Below, one piece after another: positions 41,001-45,751 of a stretch of 64,000 bases of DNA (within the stretch, counting starts at the first letter, position 1; each line of letters opens with the position of its first letter). Source of the stretch: an uncultured Clostridia bacterium (GTDB lineage Bacteria; Bacillota; Clostridia; Oscillospirales; Acutalibacteraceae); contig CALWIO010000008.1 in the NCBI GenBank assembly GCA_944380765.1, positions 1 to 64,000 on the forward strand. Direction: 5' to 3'. The notes below the pieces were generated by a model. That model saw only the letters and a list, made by a program, of their open reading frames with translations. It was not told the origin of the DNA and searched no databases. Made by a program: the position numbers and the translations under genes.

Positions 41001-41450
41001 TTACTTCATTTTTTTGTTGCAGACCGATTTAAGACAATGCTTGTCAAAACTCGGGTTAAAGGCGTAGAAATTCTTGCTGTCGAGTTTATCGGTAGCAAGC
41101 TGCAAGCCCTCGCCGAACCTCTGATAATGCACGATTTCTCTTTCTCTCAAAAACTTGATAGGCTCTCTTACATCGGGGTCGTCAACAAGACGGAGAATGT
41201 TGTCATAGGTTGTTCTCGCCTTCTGTTCCGCCGCCAAATCCTCATGCAGGTCGGTTATAACATCACCCTTTGACTGCAAGTATGCCGCCGTGAAGGGAGA
41301 GCCGCTTGCTGCGACAGGATAAACTCCCGTTGTGTGGTCAACGAAATAGGTGTCAAAGCCGTTTCTCTTGATTTCATCAATCGAAAGATTTCTTGTAAGC
41401 TGATAAACTATCGCGCCTATCATTTCAAGATGGCCCAGTTCTTCCGTACC
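41001..41450 (-). CDS. cotJC: CotJC, C-terminal part (separated by the element)
   Basis: Residues 62-210 of a manganese-catalase-like spore coat protein CotJC. The open frame reads GTEELGHLEMIGAIVYQLT... and ends at 41001 with a normal stop. It contains the ligand-type motifs EELGHLE, DLHEDLAAEQKARTTYD and REREIVHYQRF. It has no start codon or ribosome-binding site of its own: an in-frame TAA stands at 41465-41463, inside the element. Alone it would make at best a fragment from the internal ATG at 41423. Joined to 45138-45322 at the shared core it gives a 210-aa CotJC with no frameshift, so it is intact rather than decayed. Confidence 0.9.
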   Translation of the reverse strand, partial: GTEELGHLEMIGAIVYQLTRNLSIDEIKRNGFDTYFVDHTTGVYPVAASGSPFTAAYLQSKGDVITDLHEDLAAEQKARTTYDNILRLVDDPDVREPIKFLREREIVHYQRFGEGLQLATDKLDSKNFYAFNPSFDKHCLKSVCNKKMK

Positions 41451-41453
41451 TAC
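41442..41453. repeat. Left attachment core of the cotJC element
   Basis: TTCCGTACCTAC; shares TTC-Y-GTACCTA with 45131-45142. The likely crossover dinucleotide is CC at 41449-41450, inside the glycine codon of GTEE. Just inside the element, ACGCC-N7-TGTCCGC (41456-41474) forms one arm of the recombined circle site. Confidence 0.75.
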
Positions 41454-41488
41454 ATACGCCGCTTAAATGTCCGCCGGCTGTAAAGCAT

Positions 41489-43207
41489 TTAAGCCTGCTG
41501 CCTGAATTGAAGGCTGTACAGCTCTTTATACAGACCGTTATTTTTTATAAGCTGTTCATGGCGTCCCTGCTCAACAACCCTGCCGTCGGCAATTACCGCA
41601 ATTTCATCGGCGTTTTTAATTGTTGAAAGCCTGTGCGCTACAACAATAGTTGTTCTGCCCTTGCAAAGCTCGTCAAGCGCCTGCTGAATTAAAATTTCCG
41701 TTGTATTGTCAAGCGCCGAAGTAGCTTCGTCAAGTATAAGAACAGGCGGATTTTTCAAGAACACCCTGGCAATACTCAGCCTTTGCTTTTGTCCTCCCGA
41801 AAGGCGCACTCCCCTTTCGCCTATAACCGTATCGTACCCGTCAGGCATCTGCATTATGGCTTCATGAATGTTGGCTCTTTTTGCCGCCTCTATTACATCC
41901 TCGTCGGAAGCGTCAAGTCTGCCGTAAAGAATATTTTCTTTAACGCTCGCGTTAAAAAGATAAACATCCTGCTGAACAATGCCTATGTTTCTGCGCAGGG
42001 ATTTCATTGTTATTGTGTGAATATCCTTTCCGTCAATCAGTATGCGGCCCTCCTCCACATTGTAAAAACGGGGAATCAGGTGGCAAATGGTTGTTTTTCC
42101 GCCTCCGCTGGGACCGACAAGGGCAAAAGTTTTGCCCTTTTCTATTTTAAGCGATATGTTTCTGAGCACATCTTTTTCCTTGCCGTAGCCGTAAGTGACA
42201 TTCTGAAACTCAATATCGCCTTTTACATTTTCAATATCGACCGCCGAGTCATAATCCTTTTCCGGTTCCTGGTTCATAATTTCAATAAACCTTTCAAAGC
42301 CGGTTACGCCGTTCTGATACTGCTCGGTAAACTCAATCAGAGTTCTTACGGGAGCGATAAAAATGTTTACCGACACAATAAACGCCGTATAATCACCGAA
42401 GCTGATTTTTCCGGAATACAGGAAAAGTCCTCCCGCCAACAACACCACAACATTGAAAATATCGGTAATAAAAGTTGTAGAGGAATGGAACTGACCCATG
42501 GCCTTATATGCGGCTTTGCGGCAATTTACAAATTCCTTGTTTCCTACTTCAAACTTTTCTTTTTCGTTTTCCGAGTTGGTAAAAGCTTTTGTAACTCTTA
42601 TACCCGAAATACTGCTTTCAAGGGCGGCGTTTATTACGGCTATGGCTTCTCTGCTTTTCTTGAATGCGGTTTTCATCTTTTTGCGCAGAGCGGCCGATAT
42701 AATCAGCAGCGACGGTACGCAAAGGAAAATTATAAGCGTAAGGAAAAGATTTACAGAGGAAAGATAAACAAACGCCGTTATTATTGTCAAAACGGAAATG
42801 ATTATATTTTCAGGCCCGTGGTGCGCAAGTTCGCTCACTTCAAACAGGTCGTTTGTCATTCTTGACATTATCTTGCCCGTCTCGTGATCGTCATAGAACT
42901 TATACGGCAAGGTCTGCAAATGCTCAAACATATCACGGCGCATCTGCGCCTGCATTTTTACGCCCATAACATGTCCCTGATACTGAATGAAAAAATTAAG
43001 TCCCATTCTTATAAGATACAGACCTACCAAAACCGCGGCAAAGACTATAATCAGCCTGTATTCTCTATCTGGAATAAGCTCATTGAGCATTTTTCTTGTT
43101 ATCACAGGGTAAAAAATACCGATTACCGAAACAAGAAACGAAGCGCACATATCAAGCGAAAAAATCAGCCTGTGCGGCTTATAGTATGAAACAAAGCGTT
43201 TAAACAT
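41489..43207 (-). CDS. ABC exporter (fused permease-ATPase)
   Basis: 572-aa half-transporter: six-helix membrane domain (about residues 10-310, SYYKPHRLIFSLDM at the start) and ATPase domain with Walker A VGPSGGGKTT, signature RLSGGQKQRLS, Walker B VLILDEATSALD and the H-loop VAHRLST. It resembles MsbA/LmrA-type lipid or drug exporters; as a homodimer it would be complete. Start ATG 43207 has GGAG upstream. It lies inside the cotJC element, divergent from the recombinase operon, and is its only apparent cargo. Substrate unknown. Confidence 0.9.
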   Translation of the reverse strand: MFKRFVSYYKPHRLIFSLDMCASFLVSVIGIFYPVITRKMLNELIPDREYRLIIVFAAVLVGLYLIRMGLNFFIQYQGHVMGVKMQAQMRRDMFEHLQTLPYKFYDDHETGKIMSRMTNDLFEVSELAHHGPENIIISVLTIITAFVYLSSVNLFLTLIIFLCVPSLLIISAALRKKMKTAFKKSREAIAVINAALESSISGIRVTKAFTNSENEKEKFEVGNKEFVNCRKAAYKAMGQFHSSTTFITDIFNVVVLLAGGLFLYSGKISFGDYTAFIVSVNIFIAPVRTLIEFTEQYQNGVTGFERFIEIMNQEPEKDYDSAVDIENVKGDIEFQNVTYGYGKEKDVLRNISLKIEKGKTFALVGPSGGGKTTICHLIPRFYNVEEGRILIDGKDIHTITMKSLRRNIGIVQQDVYLFNASVKENILYGRLDASDEDVIEAAKRANIHEAIMQMPDGYDTVIGERGVRLSGGQKQRLSIARVFLKNPPVLILDEATSALDNTTEILIQQALDELCKGRTTIVVAHRLSTIKNADEIAVIADGRVVEQGRHEQLIKNNGLYKELYSLQFRQQA

Positions 43208-43355
43208 AATATTTCTCCAAAAATTCAATTTCATATTATTATAGCAAAACACAGTCTGTTTTTAAAGAGTGATATTGATATTTTTTACAGTTTCCGAATA
43301 TTAAATTTGTTATAACGGCATACACGGCTTTCATAAATTTTACCGAGGTGATTTT
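43208..43355. promoter_or_regulatory. Divergent promoter region inside the element
   Basis: For the ABC exporter the minus strand has a TATAAT -10 box about 30-35 bases before the start codon, with only a weak TTTAAA at the -35 position. For the recombinase operon the plus strand has GAATATT (43296-43302), 16-bp spacer and CATACA (43319-43324). This matches the sigma-E -35/-10 words, with a spacer slightly longer than usual. GAGGTG (43345-43350) is the ribosome-binding site of the 68-aa ORF. Confidence 0.5.
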
Positions 43356-43562
43356 ATGAAAACCGAAAAACTTTGTTTTAAAGAAAAACACAACACCTTT
43401 ACTAAGAGCGAAAAAGAAGAAAAATTTATGTATTTAGCCGTTTTGAACGCACTTTTTGAAATGAAGCTGATAAACTCTACTGAATACGAAATCTGCTGCC
43501 GAACATTAAAAATCGGCGGCGAAATTTTATTTGCAGGTGACTTAAACGAATATGGAGAATGA
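43356..43562 (+). CDS. Small protein before the serine recombinase; candidate directionality factor
   Basis: 68 aa, not recognised with confidence. Lys/Glu-rich first 24 residues, then a predicted helix pair with LAVLNALFEMKLINSTEYEICCRTL, which recalls SHOCT-like short helical motifs, and an acidic end (GDLNEYGE). It overlaps the recombinase start by 11 bases, so both are co-expressed. Small proteins linked to serine recombinases often act as recombination directionality factors, for example in the C. difficile skin element. That role is inferred from position only. Confidence 0.6.
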   Translation: MKTEKLCFKEKHNTFTKSEKEEKFMYLAVLNALFEMKLINSTEYEICCRTLKIGGEILFAGDLNEYGE

Positions 43563-45108
43563 TTTTAACAAATTGAAGGCTGCCGCATACTGCCGCGTTT
43601 CGACCGACAAGTCAGACCAGGCTAACTCGCTTAAAAGTCAGCGTGAATTTTTTTATAAGTACATAAGCGATAATCCCCGGCTTACCCTGTACGGCATATA
43701 TTCCGACGAGGGCGTTTCGGGTACCAGCACTAAAAAAAGAACAGCTTTTAACAAGATGCTGCAAGACGCGAAAGACAAAAAATTTGATTTGATTATCACT
43801 AAGGAAATCAGCCGCTTTGCGAGGAATACGGTTGACAGTATAACTTACACAAGAGAACTGAAAAAAATAGGCGTTGGCGTTATATTTCTTAATGACGGAA
43901 TAAACACTCTTGAAAATGACGCGGAGCTTCGCCTCGCGATAATGGCAACAATAGCTCAGGAAGAAAGCAGAAGGACAAGCGAAAGAGTTAAATGGGGACA
44001 AAAAAGGCAGATGGAAAACGGGGTTGTGTTCGGGAGAGATTTGTTCGGATACCAAGTGCAAAACGGCAAAATAACAATAAATGAAAGTGAAGCCGAAACC
44101 GTCAGGCTGATTTTTCACAAATTTTTAAACGAGGGAAAAGGCTCGCACACAATCGCCGCCGAACTTAAAAGCGAAGGCGCCGAAACCTCTGCGAGAATGA
44201 AGGAGTGGACTTATTCGGCGGTATTGAGAATTTTAAAAAACGAAAAGTACTGCGGAGATTTAATACAGCAAAAGACCTATACGCCCGACTATCTGACTCA
44301 CGCAAAAAAGCGTAACTGCGGCGAGGTTGAAAAAATTGTTATACGAAATCACCATGAAGCGATAGTTTCAAGAGAAACATTCTGCGCGGCTCAGAAAGAG
44401 TTTAAGAAGCGCCGGGCGTATCAAAAAAACGAGGACAGCGTGCGAAACAGGTATTCTCTATCGGGAAAAATATTTTGCGAAAACTGCGAAAAAGCTTTTT
44501 TAAGACGGCAAAAGACACTGAAAAGCGGCAAAAAAAGCGTTAAATGGATTTGCCCTGAGAAAATCGGTCAGGCAGAAAAGACTTGCCCTTGCCGTAGCTT
44601 ATGCCGTGCCGGCAGTATAAGCGACAGTGACCTTAAAGAAGCTGTAATGAAGGCGCAAAAAAGATTTTTAAACGCTCAGGAAAACGCTGCTGAAAAGCTG
44701 TTTGAAGCAATCAGCAAAGCTGTTGAAAAAAACGGAAGCTCATTAAATGACGAAAAGCTTGCAAAACTGGAAAAAGAATGTGATAAAACACAGCAAAAAA
44801 TGAGCAGACTGCTCGACATTTATCTTGACGGACAAATAGATTACGATGAATTTTATATCAAAAAAACGGAGTTATTATCAAAAAAACGGGAAATTTTAAA
44901 AAAAATCGACAAAAAAACAATATTTTTTTCAAATTACCGTAACCAAATCGGTTTTATTTACGATTTATATAATAGAGGGGGTAAAATAATTAAAGGTGAA
45001 GAATGGAATGAGATATATTACAAAAAAATGGTAAAAAAAATTATTGTCGACGGTAATGATTTAAAAATTTATTTAGGAGCAGGACTTTATGAAACAGCTT
45101 TTAAATAG
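43552..45108 (+). CDS. Large serine recombinase (SpoIVCA-like)
   Basis: 518 aa. N-terminal resolvase domain with AAYCRVSTDK (catalytic Ser17), SDEGVSGTSTKKR, ITKEISRFARN and ATIAQEESRRTSERVKWG. This is followed by the recombinase domain (~residues 155-285), a zinc ribbon (Cys309, Cys312, Cys334 and the CPC/C cluster near 345-351) and a coiled coil (~360-460) typical of large serine integrases. It ends 29 bases before the cotJC attachment core, as is usual for integrases that act on their own site. Start ATG 43552 overlaps the 68-aa ORF. Predicted to integrate and excise the element in cotJC. Confidence 0.93.
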   Translation: MENDFNKLKAAAYCRVSTDKSDQANSLKSQREFFYKYISDNPRLTLYGIYSDEGVSGTSTKKRTAFNKMLQDAKDKKFDLIITKEISRFARNTVDSITYTRELKKIGVGVIFLNDGINTLENDAELRLAIMATIAQEESRRTSERVKWGQKRQMENGVVFGRDLFGYQVQNGKITINESEAETVRLIFHKFLNEGKGSHTIAAELKSEGAETSARMKEWTYSAVLRILKNEKYCGDLIQQKTYTPDYLTHAKKRNCGEVEKIVIRNHHEAIVSRETFCAAQKEFKKRRAYQKNEDSVRNRYSLSGKIFCENCEKAFLRRQKTLKSGKKSVKWICPEKIGQAEKTCPCRSLCRAGSISDSDLKEAVMKAQKRFLNAQENAAEKLFEAISKAVEKNGSSLNDEKLAKLEKECDKTQQKMSRLLDIYLDGQIDYDEFYIKKTELLSKKREILKKIDKKTIFFSNYRNQIGFIYDLYNRGGKIIKGEEWNEIYYKKMVKKIIVDGNDLKIYLGAGLYETAFK

Positions 45109-45121
45109 TTTTCGCGGACAA

Positions 45122-45322
45122 TTATGGGCGTTCTGTACCTATATCGGTAAGCAATCCTTTAAGCTCGGCAAAAGGCATTGAAAACCTCTGCGAAAGATAA
45201 CGAAGCGAAGCTCCGAGCTCGCCGTCGGGTCCTCCGTACTGACTGATAATTATCTGCGCGTATTTAGGATTAGGATTTTTTATTTTTACAGGAAACTGTA
45301 ATTTTTTCTCGTATTGAAACAT
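45122..45322 (-). CDS. cotJC: CotJC, N-terminal part (interrupted)
   Basis: First 64 codons of CotJC: MFQYEKKLQFPVKIKN..., QYGGPDGELGASLRYLSQR and LLTDIGTE, then two element-derived codons (Arg-Pro) and a stop. B. subtilis CotJC continues LLTDIGTEE-x-AHLEM at this point, exactly the sequence found at 41423-41450. In the unexcised state only a 66-aa peptide lacking most metal ligands would be made. ATG overlaps the cotJB stop (ATGA), so it is translated within cotJABC. Confidence 0.92.
   Translation of the reverse strand: MFQYEKKLQFPVKIKNPNPKYAQIIISQYGGPDGELGASLRYLSQRFSMPFAELKGLLTDIGTERP
45131..45142. repeat. Right attachment core of the cotJC element
   Basis: TTCTGTACCTAT; shares TTC-Y-GTACCTA with 41442-41453. 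The CC at 45138-45139 is the proposed crossover. The adjoining element DNA (45113-45130) reads GCGGACA-N6-GGCGT, the inverse of the left inner arm. Confidence 0.75.
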
Positions 45323-45570
45323 CAGCAGTCACACTCCTTGTATTCCCACGGCCACGGGTCTTTAAGCCATCCCGCGGCACTGTCTTCACCGATAGTAAGC
45401 GGTCCGCACATCTCTTCATACTGGGCTTTAAGCTCAGCAGCCCTCTGCGAATACTTCTTATACATCTCTGCCGCTTTCTTATCGCACTTATGCGTATCAA
45501 GATAAAGATGAAGCTCCCAGGCGGCAAACTGAACGCCCGAAAGTTCTCTTAAAAGTTTGCATTTATCCAC
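45322..45570 (-). CDS. cotJB: Spore coat protein CotJB
   Basis: 82 aa with LLRELSGVQFAAWELHLYLDTHKCDKKA, CGPLT and C-terminal WLKDPWPWEYKECDC, the CotJB pattern. Start GTG 45570 has GGAGG eight bases upstream; the longer in-frame TTG start at 45600 places that site inside the gene. Overlaps the end of cotJA by eight bases. Made in the mother cell in other spore formers, where CotJ proteins form an inner coat layer. Confidence 0.9.
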   Translation of the reverse strand: MDKCKLLRELSGVQFAAWELHLYLDTHKCDKKAAEMYKKYSQRAAELKAQYEEMCGPLTIGEDSAAGWLKDPWPWEYKECDC

Positions 45571-45751
45571 AGCATTTACCTCCGTATAATTTTTTGTCAA
45601 GTTCGGGGAAAAGCGTGCCGTTGCAGAAACCTTCCGCGTATTTATAGGTTATGAGTTCCGTTTGAAAAGGGACATACGCCATTGCCGCAACCGGGTCGCA
45701 GGGCAATTCAGGCATATTTTCGCAAACGCACTCGCAAAATTTCTCTTCCAT
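45563..45751 (-). CDS. cotJA: Spore coat associated protein CotJA
   Basis: 62 aa, Cys-rich, with the family core MAYVPFQTELITYKYAEGFCNGTLFPELDKKLYGG. Start ATG 45751 preceded by AGGAG. First gene of cotJABC. No clear sigma-E promoter could be picked in the 117 bases upstream, which also carry the divergent promoter of the next operon. Confidence 0.88.
   Translation of the reverse strand: MEEKFCECVCENMPELPCDPVAAMAYVPFQTELITYKYAEGFCNGTLFPELDKKLYGGKCCG

What the first reader, a model, noticed from the sequence alone, without database searches (positions are those of the whole stretch)
41442..45142. A skin-like intervening element splits the spore coat gene cotJC and excision would rebuild it in frame
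Seen: CotJC codons 1-64 at 45322-45131 and codons from the same GTE onward at 41450-41001, separated by 3,689 bp encoding a large serine recombinase, a 68-aa ORF and an ABC exporter. Both junctions share TTC-Y-GTACCTA; recombination at CC gives LLTDIGTE-ELGHLEM, the expected CotJC sequence, with no frameshift. Neither half has decayed. Known: skin in sigK and the prophage in spsM are removed by serine recombinases in the mother cell. Inference: this is an equivalent developmentally excised element in cotJC, small and carrying only an exporter. I know of no described cotJC example but cannot search.
Basis: partly seen in the sequence, partly recalled or inferred. Interest (0 to 1): 0.95.

Follow-up and report, generated by a model that had tools for sequence, protein, structure and literature searches.

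The report
Spore-coat gene split by excisable elements
In this genome, and in many related gut Clostridia, the spore-coat gene cotJC is cut into two, three or even four pieces by inserted DNA elements at three fixed codons; the elements carry their own recombinases, which would likely remove them while the spore is being made and so rebuild the gene.

Summary
CotJC codons 1-62 and 62-210 flank a 3,689-bp element, and the two halves are the only Mn-catalase matches in a 99.8% complete genome. The element holds an intact large serine recombinase (LSR), a 68-aa ORF overlapping it and an MsbA-like exporter. It is not a one-off: 75 of 80 closest public LSR relatives lie against a cotJC half cut at this codon. 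In the host's order, 102 of 255 genomes with a match lack a one-piece copy; in 97 of the 100 re-listed, pieces end at one of three codons. LSRs of sites A and C each form one clade; 44 of 45 site-B LSRs fall in one. Single genes hold up to three elements in order. Near-identical elements sit in hosts whose cotJC has diverged, so they move horizontally. The 68-aa ORF belongs to an unnamed family found ahead of 89 of 102 site-B LSRs, with a sigma-E-type promoter motif in 26 of 42. I infer a directionality factor made in the mother cell that triggers excision during sporulation. Excision itself is untested. Ten paper searches found no cotJC case.

The parts
45138..45322 (-). cotJC 5' part, codons 1-62
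   Evidence: Mn_catalase profile 1-65; only matches in the genome are this and the 3' part
41001..41449 (-). cotJC 3' part, from codon 62 to the stop
   Evidence: Mn_catalase profile 63-197; no stop inside
45135..45141 (.). core of the attachment site at the 5' part (GTACCTA; crossover inferred at CC 45138-45139)
41446..41452 (.). core of the attachment site at the 3' part (GTACCTA; CC 41449-41450)
41450..45138 (.). intervening element, 3,689 bp
43552..45108 (+). large serine recombinase, 518 aa
   Evidence: Resolvase, Recombinase and Zn_ribbon_recom domains; 75 of 80 closest public relatives abut cotJC
43356..43562 (+). 68-aa ORF, candidate recombination directionality factor (inferred); overlaps the recombinase start by 11 bp
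   Evidence: family found ahead of 89 of 102 site-B recombinases; no Pfam or PHROG match for this protein
43296..43324 (+). sigma-E-type promoter motif GAATATT-N16-CATACA (predicted)
41489..43252 (-). MsbA-like ABC exporter (cargo)
   Evidence: ABC_membrane and ABC_tran; TIGR02203 505.7 bits, under its cut-off of 602
45322..45600 (-). cotJB
   Evidence: CotJB domain
45563..45751 (-). cotJA
   Evidence: CotJA domain

Best explanation
The 3,689-bp segment at 41450-45138 is a site-specifically inserted element that splits cotJC inside codon 62 and carries a large serine recombinase that is predicted to cut the element out in the sporulating mother cell, likely with the adjoining 68-aa protein as its directionality factor, and so would rebuild cotJC. 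Shown: one cotJC gene in two parts, an exact shared core, an intact recombinase reading frame, and a recombinase lineage that sits at this same codon in many hosts. Also shown: near-identical elements in hosts whose own cotJC has diverged, and a sigma-E-type motif ahead of the small ORF in most non-redundant members of the family. Inferred: in vegetative cells the recombinase without the small protein integrates the circle into cotJC; when sigma-E switches on in the mother cell, the small protein is made and flips the recombinase to excision. The mother cell dies at the end of sporulation, so the germ line keeps the element while the coat still receives whole CotJC. The element would thus use cotJC as a landing site that costs little. 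Two other recombinase lineages are inferred to do the same near codons 31 (site A) and 139 (site C).
For: No other cotJC in the genome. 75 of 80 closest public recombinase relatives abut a cotJC half cut at this codon. In the order, 97 of 100 re-listed genomes without a one-piece copy have piece ends at three codons only, and 38 of 41 neighbouring piece pairs on one contig are collinear with 3.1-52.5 kb between them. 36 of 37 fetched splits rejoin cleanly. Recombinases sort by site: A 16 of 16 and C 9 of 9 in one clade each, B 44 of 45. The small-ORF family precedes 89 of 102 site-B recombinases, 4 of 5 related ones, 0 of 18 site-A, 0 of 9 site-C and 6 of 93 others (its 12 seeds are among the 89). 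ATA-N16-18-CATA: 26 of 42 non-redundant upstreams against a shuffled mean of 1.68 (maximum 6 of 200 shuffles); controls 1 of 16, 0 of 9 and 0 of 62. Host has spoIVA, spoIIID and a sigma-E-like factor. In C. difficile the skin directionality factor CD1234 is a 72-aa protein under sigma-E and SpoIIID (PMC5025042, passages).
Against: No excised junction or circle was seen; none was searchable. 16 of 42 upstreams lack the motif. In the own genome the motif rule is met ahead of spoIIID but not within about 200 nt of spoIVA, two sigma-factor genes or cotJA. SpoIIID sites are not clearly enriched. Low dN/dS of the halves does not prove use after insertion, because the elements are recent arrivals in many hosts. 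No such small ORF was found for site A, and only a hint for site C. Pieces in G132 (675 kb apart) and G192 (opposite strands) are not collinear, G219 site B would rejoin one residue short, and a few pieces carry stops (G060; G245).
Confidence: 0.78

Rival explanations
1. An ordinary integrative element uses a conserved stretch of a dispensable coat gene as its attachment site. It excises at times unrelated to sporulation, for its own transfer, and cotJC is simply off in carriers.
For: Elements are horizontally mobile, some lie in viral collections (5 of 35 IMG/VR loci show a cotJC piece at the junction), and cotJC is absent altogether from 42 of 297 genomes of the order.
Against: The sigma-E-type motif ahead of the partner ORF at site B, absent from 62 of 62 other recombinase upstreams. 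Three separate recombinase lineages settled in one mother-cell gene. The window's element has no phage or conjugation gene among the ORFs seen.
Confidence: 0.17
2. A dead insertion: the recombinase no longer works and cotJC has been lost in this strain.
For: The nearest recombinase in the tree set is only 52% identical, so this copy has no close sister to vouch for it. Some split pieces elsewhere do carry stops (G060; G245).
Against: Open reading frames throughout, three complete recombinase domains, exact cores, no stops in either half.
Confidence: 0.04
3. An assembly artefact or chimera.
For: The source is a 31-contig draft.
Against: The same arrangement recurs in 75 of 80 public loci and in single-contig genomes: G225 has 5' and 3' parts split at site B, G179 at site A.
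Confidence: 0.01

Closest known systems
skin element in sigK of Clostridioides difficile (recombinase CD1231, directionality factor CD1234; PMC5025042, passages)
   Same: Serine recombinase inside a mother-cell gene; small partner protein (72 aa there, 68 aa here) with a sigma-E-type promoter.
   Different: Target gene; here the small ORF and the recombinase overlap as one likely operon, whereas CD1231 has its own sigma-A promoter. Regulation and excision shown there, only predicted here.
SP-beta in spsM, vfbin in spoVFB, vrin in spoVR (PMC4191935, passages), gin in gerE (PMC5595907, passages), yin in yabG (PMC10747680, passages)
   Same: Intervening elements in sporulation genes; gin shows that such elements need not be phage-like.
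   Different: Each was described at one position in its gene. cotJC has three positions, stacked insertions, and in this window a minimal 3.7-kb element.
nif-gene interruption elements of heterocyst-forming cyanobacteria (PMC4874684, passages)
   Same: Several position-specific element variants in one gene (four in nifD, six in nifH), with recombinases clustering by variant.
   Different: Cyanobacteria and nitrogen fixation. In the papers seen I met no sporulation gene with this pattern.

Membership tests
skin-like sporulation gene-intervening element | insertion inside the coding sequence of a sporulation gene | tested here: met
   cotJC split inside codon 62, next to cotJA and cotJB
skin-like sporulation gene-intervening element | flanking direct repeats as recombination core | tested here: met
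   GTACCTA at both ends; GG shared in 17 of 19 site-B pairs
skin-like sporulation gene-intervening element | encodes a site-specific recombinase | tested here: met
   three serine-recombinase domains
skin-like sporulation gene-intervening element | encodes a recombination directionality factor | tested here: inconclusive
   linked small-protein family; function not tested
skin-like sporulation gene-intervening element | mother-cell expression of recombinase or directionality factor | tested here: inconclusive
   sigma-E-type motif in 26 of 42; expression not tested
skin-like sporulation gene-intervening element | excision and circle during sporulation | not testable with these tools
   no reads or cells
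skin-like sporulation gene-intervening element | host sporulates | tested here: inconclusive
   spoIVA 717 bits over its cut-off; spoIIID 105.7 bits, under its cut-off of 111.5; sigma-E-like 321 bits, under its cut-off of 348.6
prophage or conjugative element | phage structural or conjugation genes | tested here: not met
   the window's element encodes only exporter, small ORF and recombinase at domain level
CotJC (manganese-catalase family) | Mn_catalase domain next to cotJA and cotJB | tested here: met

The most novel reading that the evidence does not exclude
cotJC is the gene-in-pieces of spore formers. Three independent lineages of mobile elements have each specialised on one codon of it and stack in the same gene, so that a spore-coat enzyme is assembled from up to four DNA exons by three separate recombinases in the doomed mother cell. 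An unnamed small-protein family under a sigma-E promoter times the cut at site B. About 40% of the cotJC-bearing genomes sampled in one order of gut bacteria would depend on it.
Probability: 0.65. Interest if true: 0.92.

Novelty: new variant of a known kind. Interest (0 to 1): 0.83.

Why it matters
Developmental DNA excision in spore formers has been a handful of cases (in the passages seen: sigK, spsM, gerE, spoVFB, spoVR and yabG). cotJC would turn it into a population-scale system: three sites, many hosts, stacked insertions and horizontally moving elements. Why such elements settle in mother-cell genes could then be tested by comparison, and public records not marked as metagenome assemblies carry it (L061, L074, L083, L086, L110; titles). 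It also supplies codon-specific large serine recombinases with natural attachment sites and a linked candidate directionality factor. Practically, annotation pipelines and sporulation predictors that look for whole cotJC will miss it in roughly 40% of the matching genomes sampled here (102 of 255).

Tried and rejected
dN/dS of the halves as proof of continued function: computed (few pairs computable, e.g. 3 of 15 split-split pairs for the 5' half), then set aside, because recombinases 98-99% identical sit in hosts whose cotJC is near saturation at silent sites, so most of the signal predates insertion. In-frame rejoining as evidence of function: rejected as automatic for precise insertion. SpoIIID binding sites: the B. 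subtilis consensus (recalled) and the C. difficile one were not clearly enriched; a word chosen after the fact, RNACAAKC, is (14 of 42 against 2.5), which I do not claim. Upstream small ORFs by simple proximity were found at only 25 of 99 usable site-B loci; the profile search replaced it. A solved-structure search with the small-ORF profile gave two weak, unrelated hits. The AlphaFold model is a helix hairpin (mean pLDDT 71.2); I did not search folds with so short a model. A conserved small ORF for site A was not found, and for site C only a hint. The first junction script mis-chose some cores and was replaced. An 89-bp gap in G144, counted as a pair, is not an insertion. A first site assignment by script was too strict and was replaced.

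Full report
OBSERVATION. The cotJABC operon lies on the minus strand at 41001-45751. cotJC is split inside codon 62 by 3,689 bp. Both ends share GTACCTA (45135-45141 and 41446-41452). Joining at the shared CC gives LLTDIG-TEELGHLEM, as in intact copies of the genus. A whole-genome search with Mn_catalase finds only these two halves. The element encodes a 518-aa large serine recombinase (LSR) with three near-complete domains, a 68-aa ORF that overlaps its start by 11 bp, and an MsbA-like ABC exporter. Its G+C is 40.1% against 43.7% for the window.

A DEDICATED RECOMBINASE LINEAGE. Of the 80 closest LSR relatives kept from public genomes (285 were found, 80 kept), 75 lie within 800 bp of a cotJC half whose edge is at this codon: 74 next to the 5' half and 1 next to the 3' half. 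Five do not (L087, L092, L098, L103, L108). Record titles name Lachnospiraceae, Ruminococcaceae, Oscillospiraceae and unclassified Clostridia, some not marked as metagenome assemblies. In IMG/VR, 5 of 35 related loci carry a cotJC piece at the junction. Within 59 relatives, LSRs of this close kind are next to cotJC in 7 of the 30 loci fetched, the window's own included.

THREE SITES IN ONE GENE. In the genus, 34 of 39 genomes have a match, with both whole and split genes. In the order, 255 of 297 genomes have a match. By my reading of that table, 102 have no match better than 1e-45, which is about where one-piece genes end. I re-listed 100 of the 102; the other two are G000 and G007, both split at the window's site. 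In 97 of 100 the pieces end at one of three places: site A near codon 31 (QYGG|PDGE), site B at codon 62 (TDIG|TEEL, the window) and site C near codon 139 (LAAE|QKAR). The sorting was automatic, after dropping short matches to ferritin-like paralogues: B 34, C 28, A 17, B+C 10, A+B 6, A+C 1, A+B+C 1, none 3. Many pieces lie on different contigs, so contig ends may account for some missing partners. On single contigs there are 41 neighbouring piece pairs. 39 are collinear on one strand; one of these (G144, 89 bp) is not an insertion, and the other 38 gaps measure 3.1-52.5 kb. Two pairs are not collinear (G132, G192). Several genes carry more than one element in order on one contig: G071, G066, G185 and G299 have B and C, G325 has A and B, and G219 has A, B and C, so its gene is in four pieces. 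A class-level search (238 of 392 genomes with a match) lists further genomes with weak best matches outside the order, which I did not sort.

JUNCTIONS. I fetched both ends of 36 splits and added the window's: 19 at B, 10 at C and 8 at A. Five further same-contig pairs were not fetched. 36 of 37 rejoin cleanly in frame. G219 site B would be one residue short, and its element has a second recombinase at the far end. The dinucleotide common to both junctions is GG in 17 of 19 site-B pairs (not G325 or G219), GG in 8 of 8 site-A pairs and GA in 10 of 10 site-C pairs. In-frame rejoining is expected of any precise insertion and says nothing by itself about use.

RECOMBINASE TREE. In a quick maximum-likelihood tree of 135 LSRs, thinned of near copies, the 16 site-A rows form one clade and the 9 site-C rows one clade (both 100). 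44 of 45 site-B rows form one supported set (98) with 2 of the related rows lacking cotJC at the junction (L092, L108) and 4 IMG/VR rows (L149, L150, L152, L153). The site-B outlier is G325, which also has a different core. Long branches were flagged, and the tree is not a dated history.

THE SMALL PARTNER. A profile from 12 of the small ORFs finds the family just upstream of 89 of 102 site-B LSRs (98 distinct proteins; the seeds are among the 89) and 4 of 5 related ones, but 0 of 18 site-A, 0 of 9 site-C and 6 of 93 other LSRs. 110 of 116 hits lie at an LSR start on the same strand. The window's protein has no Pfam or PHROG match (the other members tested gave stray Pfam hits only). There are 682 database relatives at E <= 0.001, and among the 120 listed none has a functional name. 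A model of the window's protein is a two-helix hairpin (mean pLDDT 71.2). Its place and size resemble CD1234, the 72-aa directionality factor of skin in C. difficile, which is under sigma-E and SpoIIID (PMC5025042, passages). That it is the directionality factor here is inference.

PROMOTER. A word count upstream of the small ORFs brought up ribosome-binding words and CATA words. I then tested the sigma-E spacing rule ATA-N16-18-CATA, which is recalled knowledge and was chosen after I had seen the window's sequence. It is in 26 of 42 non-redundant upstreams (window included) against a shuffled mean of 1.68 (maximum 6 of 200), mostly 24-35 nt before the start codon. It is in 1 of 16 site-A, 0 of 9 site-C and 0 of 62 other LSR upstreams. 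The window has GAATATT-N16-CATACA at 43296-43324. In the own genome the rule is met ahead of spoIIID but not ahead of spoIVA, two sigma-factor genes or cotJA, in about 200 nt each. The host encodes SpoIVA, SpoIIID and a sigma-E-like factor, the last two slightly under their curated cut-offs.

MOBILITY. For 9 pairs that I chose for near-identical recombinases, identity is 96-99% over about 1.2 kb of element next to the junction, 67-84% in the adjoining cotJC half, and 62-77% further out in the host for the 8 pairs with enough sequence. The elements therefore move between hosts and re-enter the same codon. For that reason the low dN/dS of the halves (0.037 and 0.050 between split genes, where computable) cannot show selection after insertion. 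Small elements carry ordinary cargo: a pyrimidine-nucleoside phosphorylase, a GH25/LysM protein, a polysaccharide deacetylase, a methyladenine glycosylase and, in the window, an exporter.

MECHANISM. Shown: exact insertion, intact recombinase frame and cores, a lineage fixed on this codon, horizontal spread, a linked small-protein family and a sigma-E-type motif. Inferred: integration in vegetative cells by recombinase alone; small protein made in the mother cell; excision, whole cotJC, coat protein; and the germ line keeps the element because the mother cell dies.

LITERATURE. Searches (the ten allowed; open-licence PubMed Central only) showed no cotJC intervening element in their listings. 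I saw passages, not whole texts, of PMC5595907, PMC4191935, PMC10747680, PMC11222575, PMC5025042 and PMC4874684. Subscription papers and preprints were not searched, so a prior report cannot be excluded.

Noticed in passing
L276 (G033:C2:305500-318000) and L284/L285 (G029:C10:1500-34000): Two genomes of the genus have a whole cotJC plus a second 3' part cut exactly at site B and preceded by the same element-end sequence, with a giant surface protein beside it and no serine recombinase in the fetched stretches. The 3' copies are 99.7% (G033) and 84% (G029) identical to the whole gene; this may be an element that lost its recombinase in a host that regained a whole gene.
   Followed up: partly
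L257/L258 (G219:C1:205000-275500): The 49-kb site-B element has a recombinase at each end and its junctions are not clean; it may be composite.
   Followed up: partly
G132:C1 and G192:C3: Pieces of cotJC on one contig but not collinear: 675 kb apart in G132, on opposite strands in G192. Rearrangement or relic.
   Followed up: no
L263:2477-2647 and similar site-C loci: A short ORF ahead of a site-C recombinase has relatives in 5 other site-C loci; a possible directionality factor for site C.
   Followed up: no
L086 and L110 (records Roseburia sp. 1XD42-69 and Bacterium D16-51): Both carry site-A and site-B splits in one cotJC; useful for bench work if the strains can be obtained.
   Followed up: no
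L146, L147, L149 (IMG/VR): Viral-collection contigs end about 90 bp after a related recombinase, as if trimmed at the attachment site.
   Followed up: no
G060:C44:6911-7294 and G245:C59:88-345: cotJC pieces with in-frame stops: possible decay after insertion, in a 68% complete genome (G060) and at a contig end (G245).
   Followed up: no
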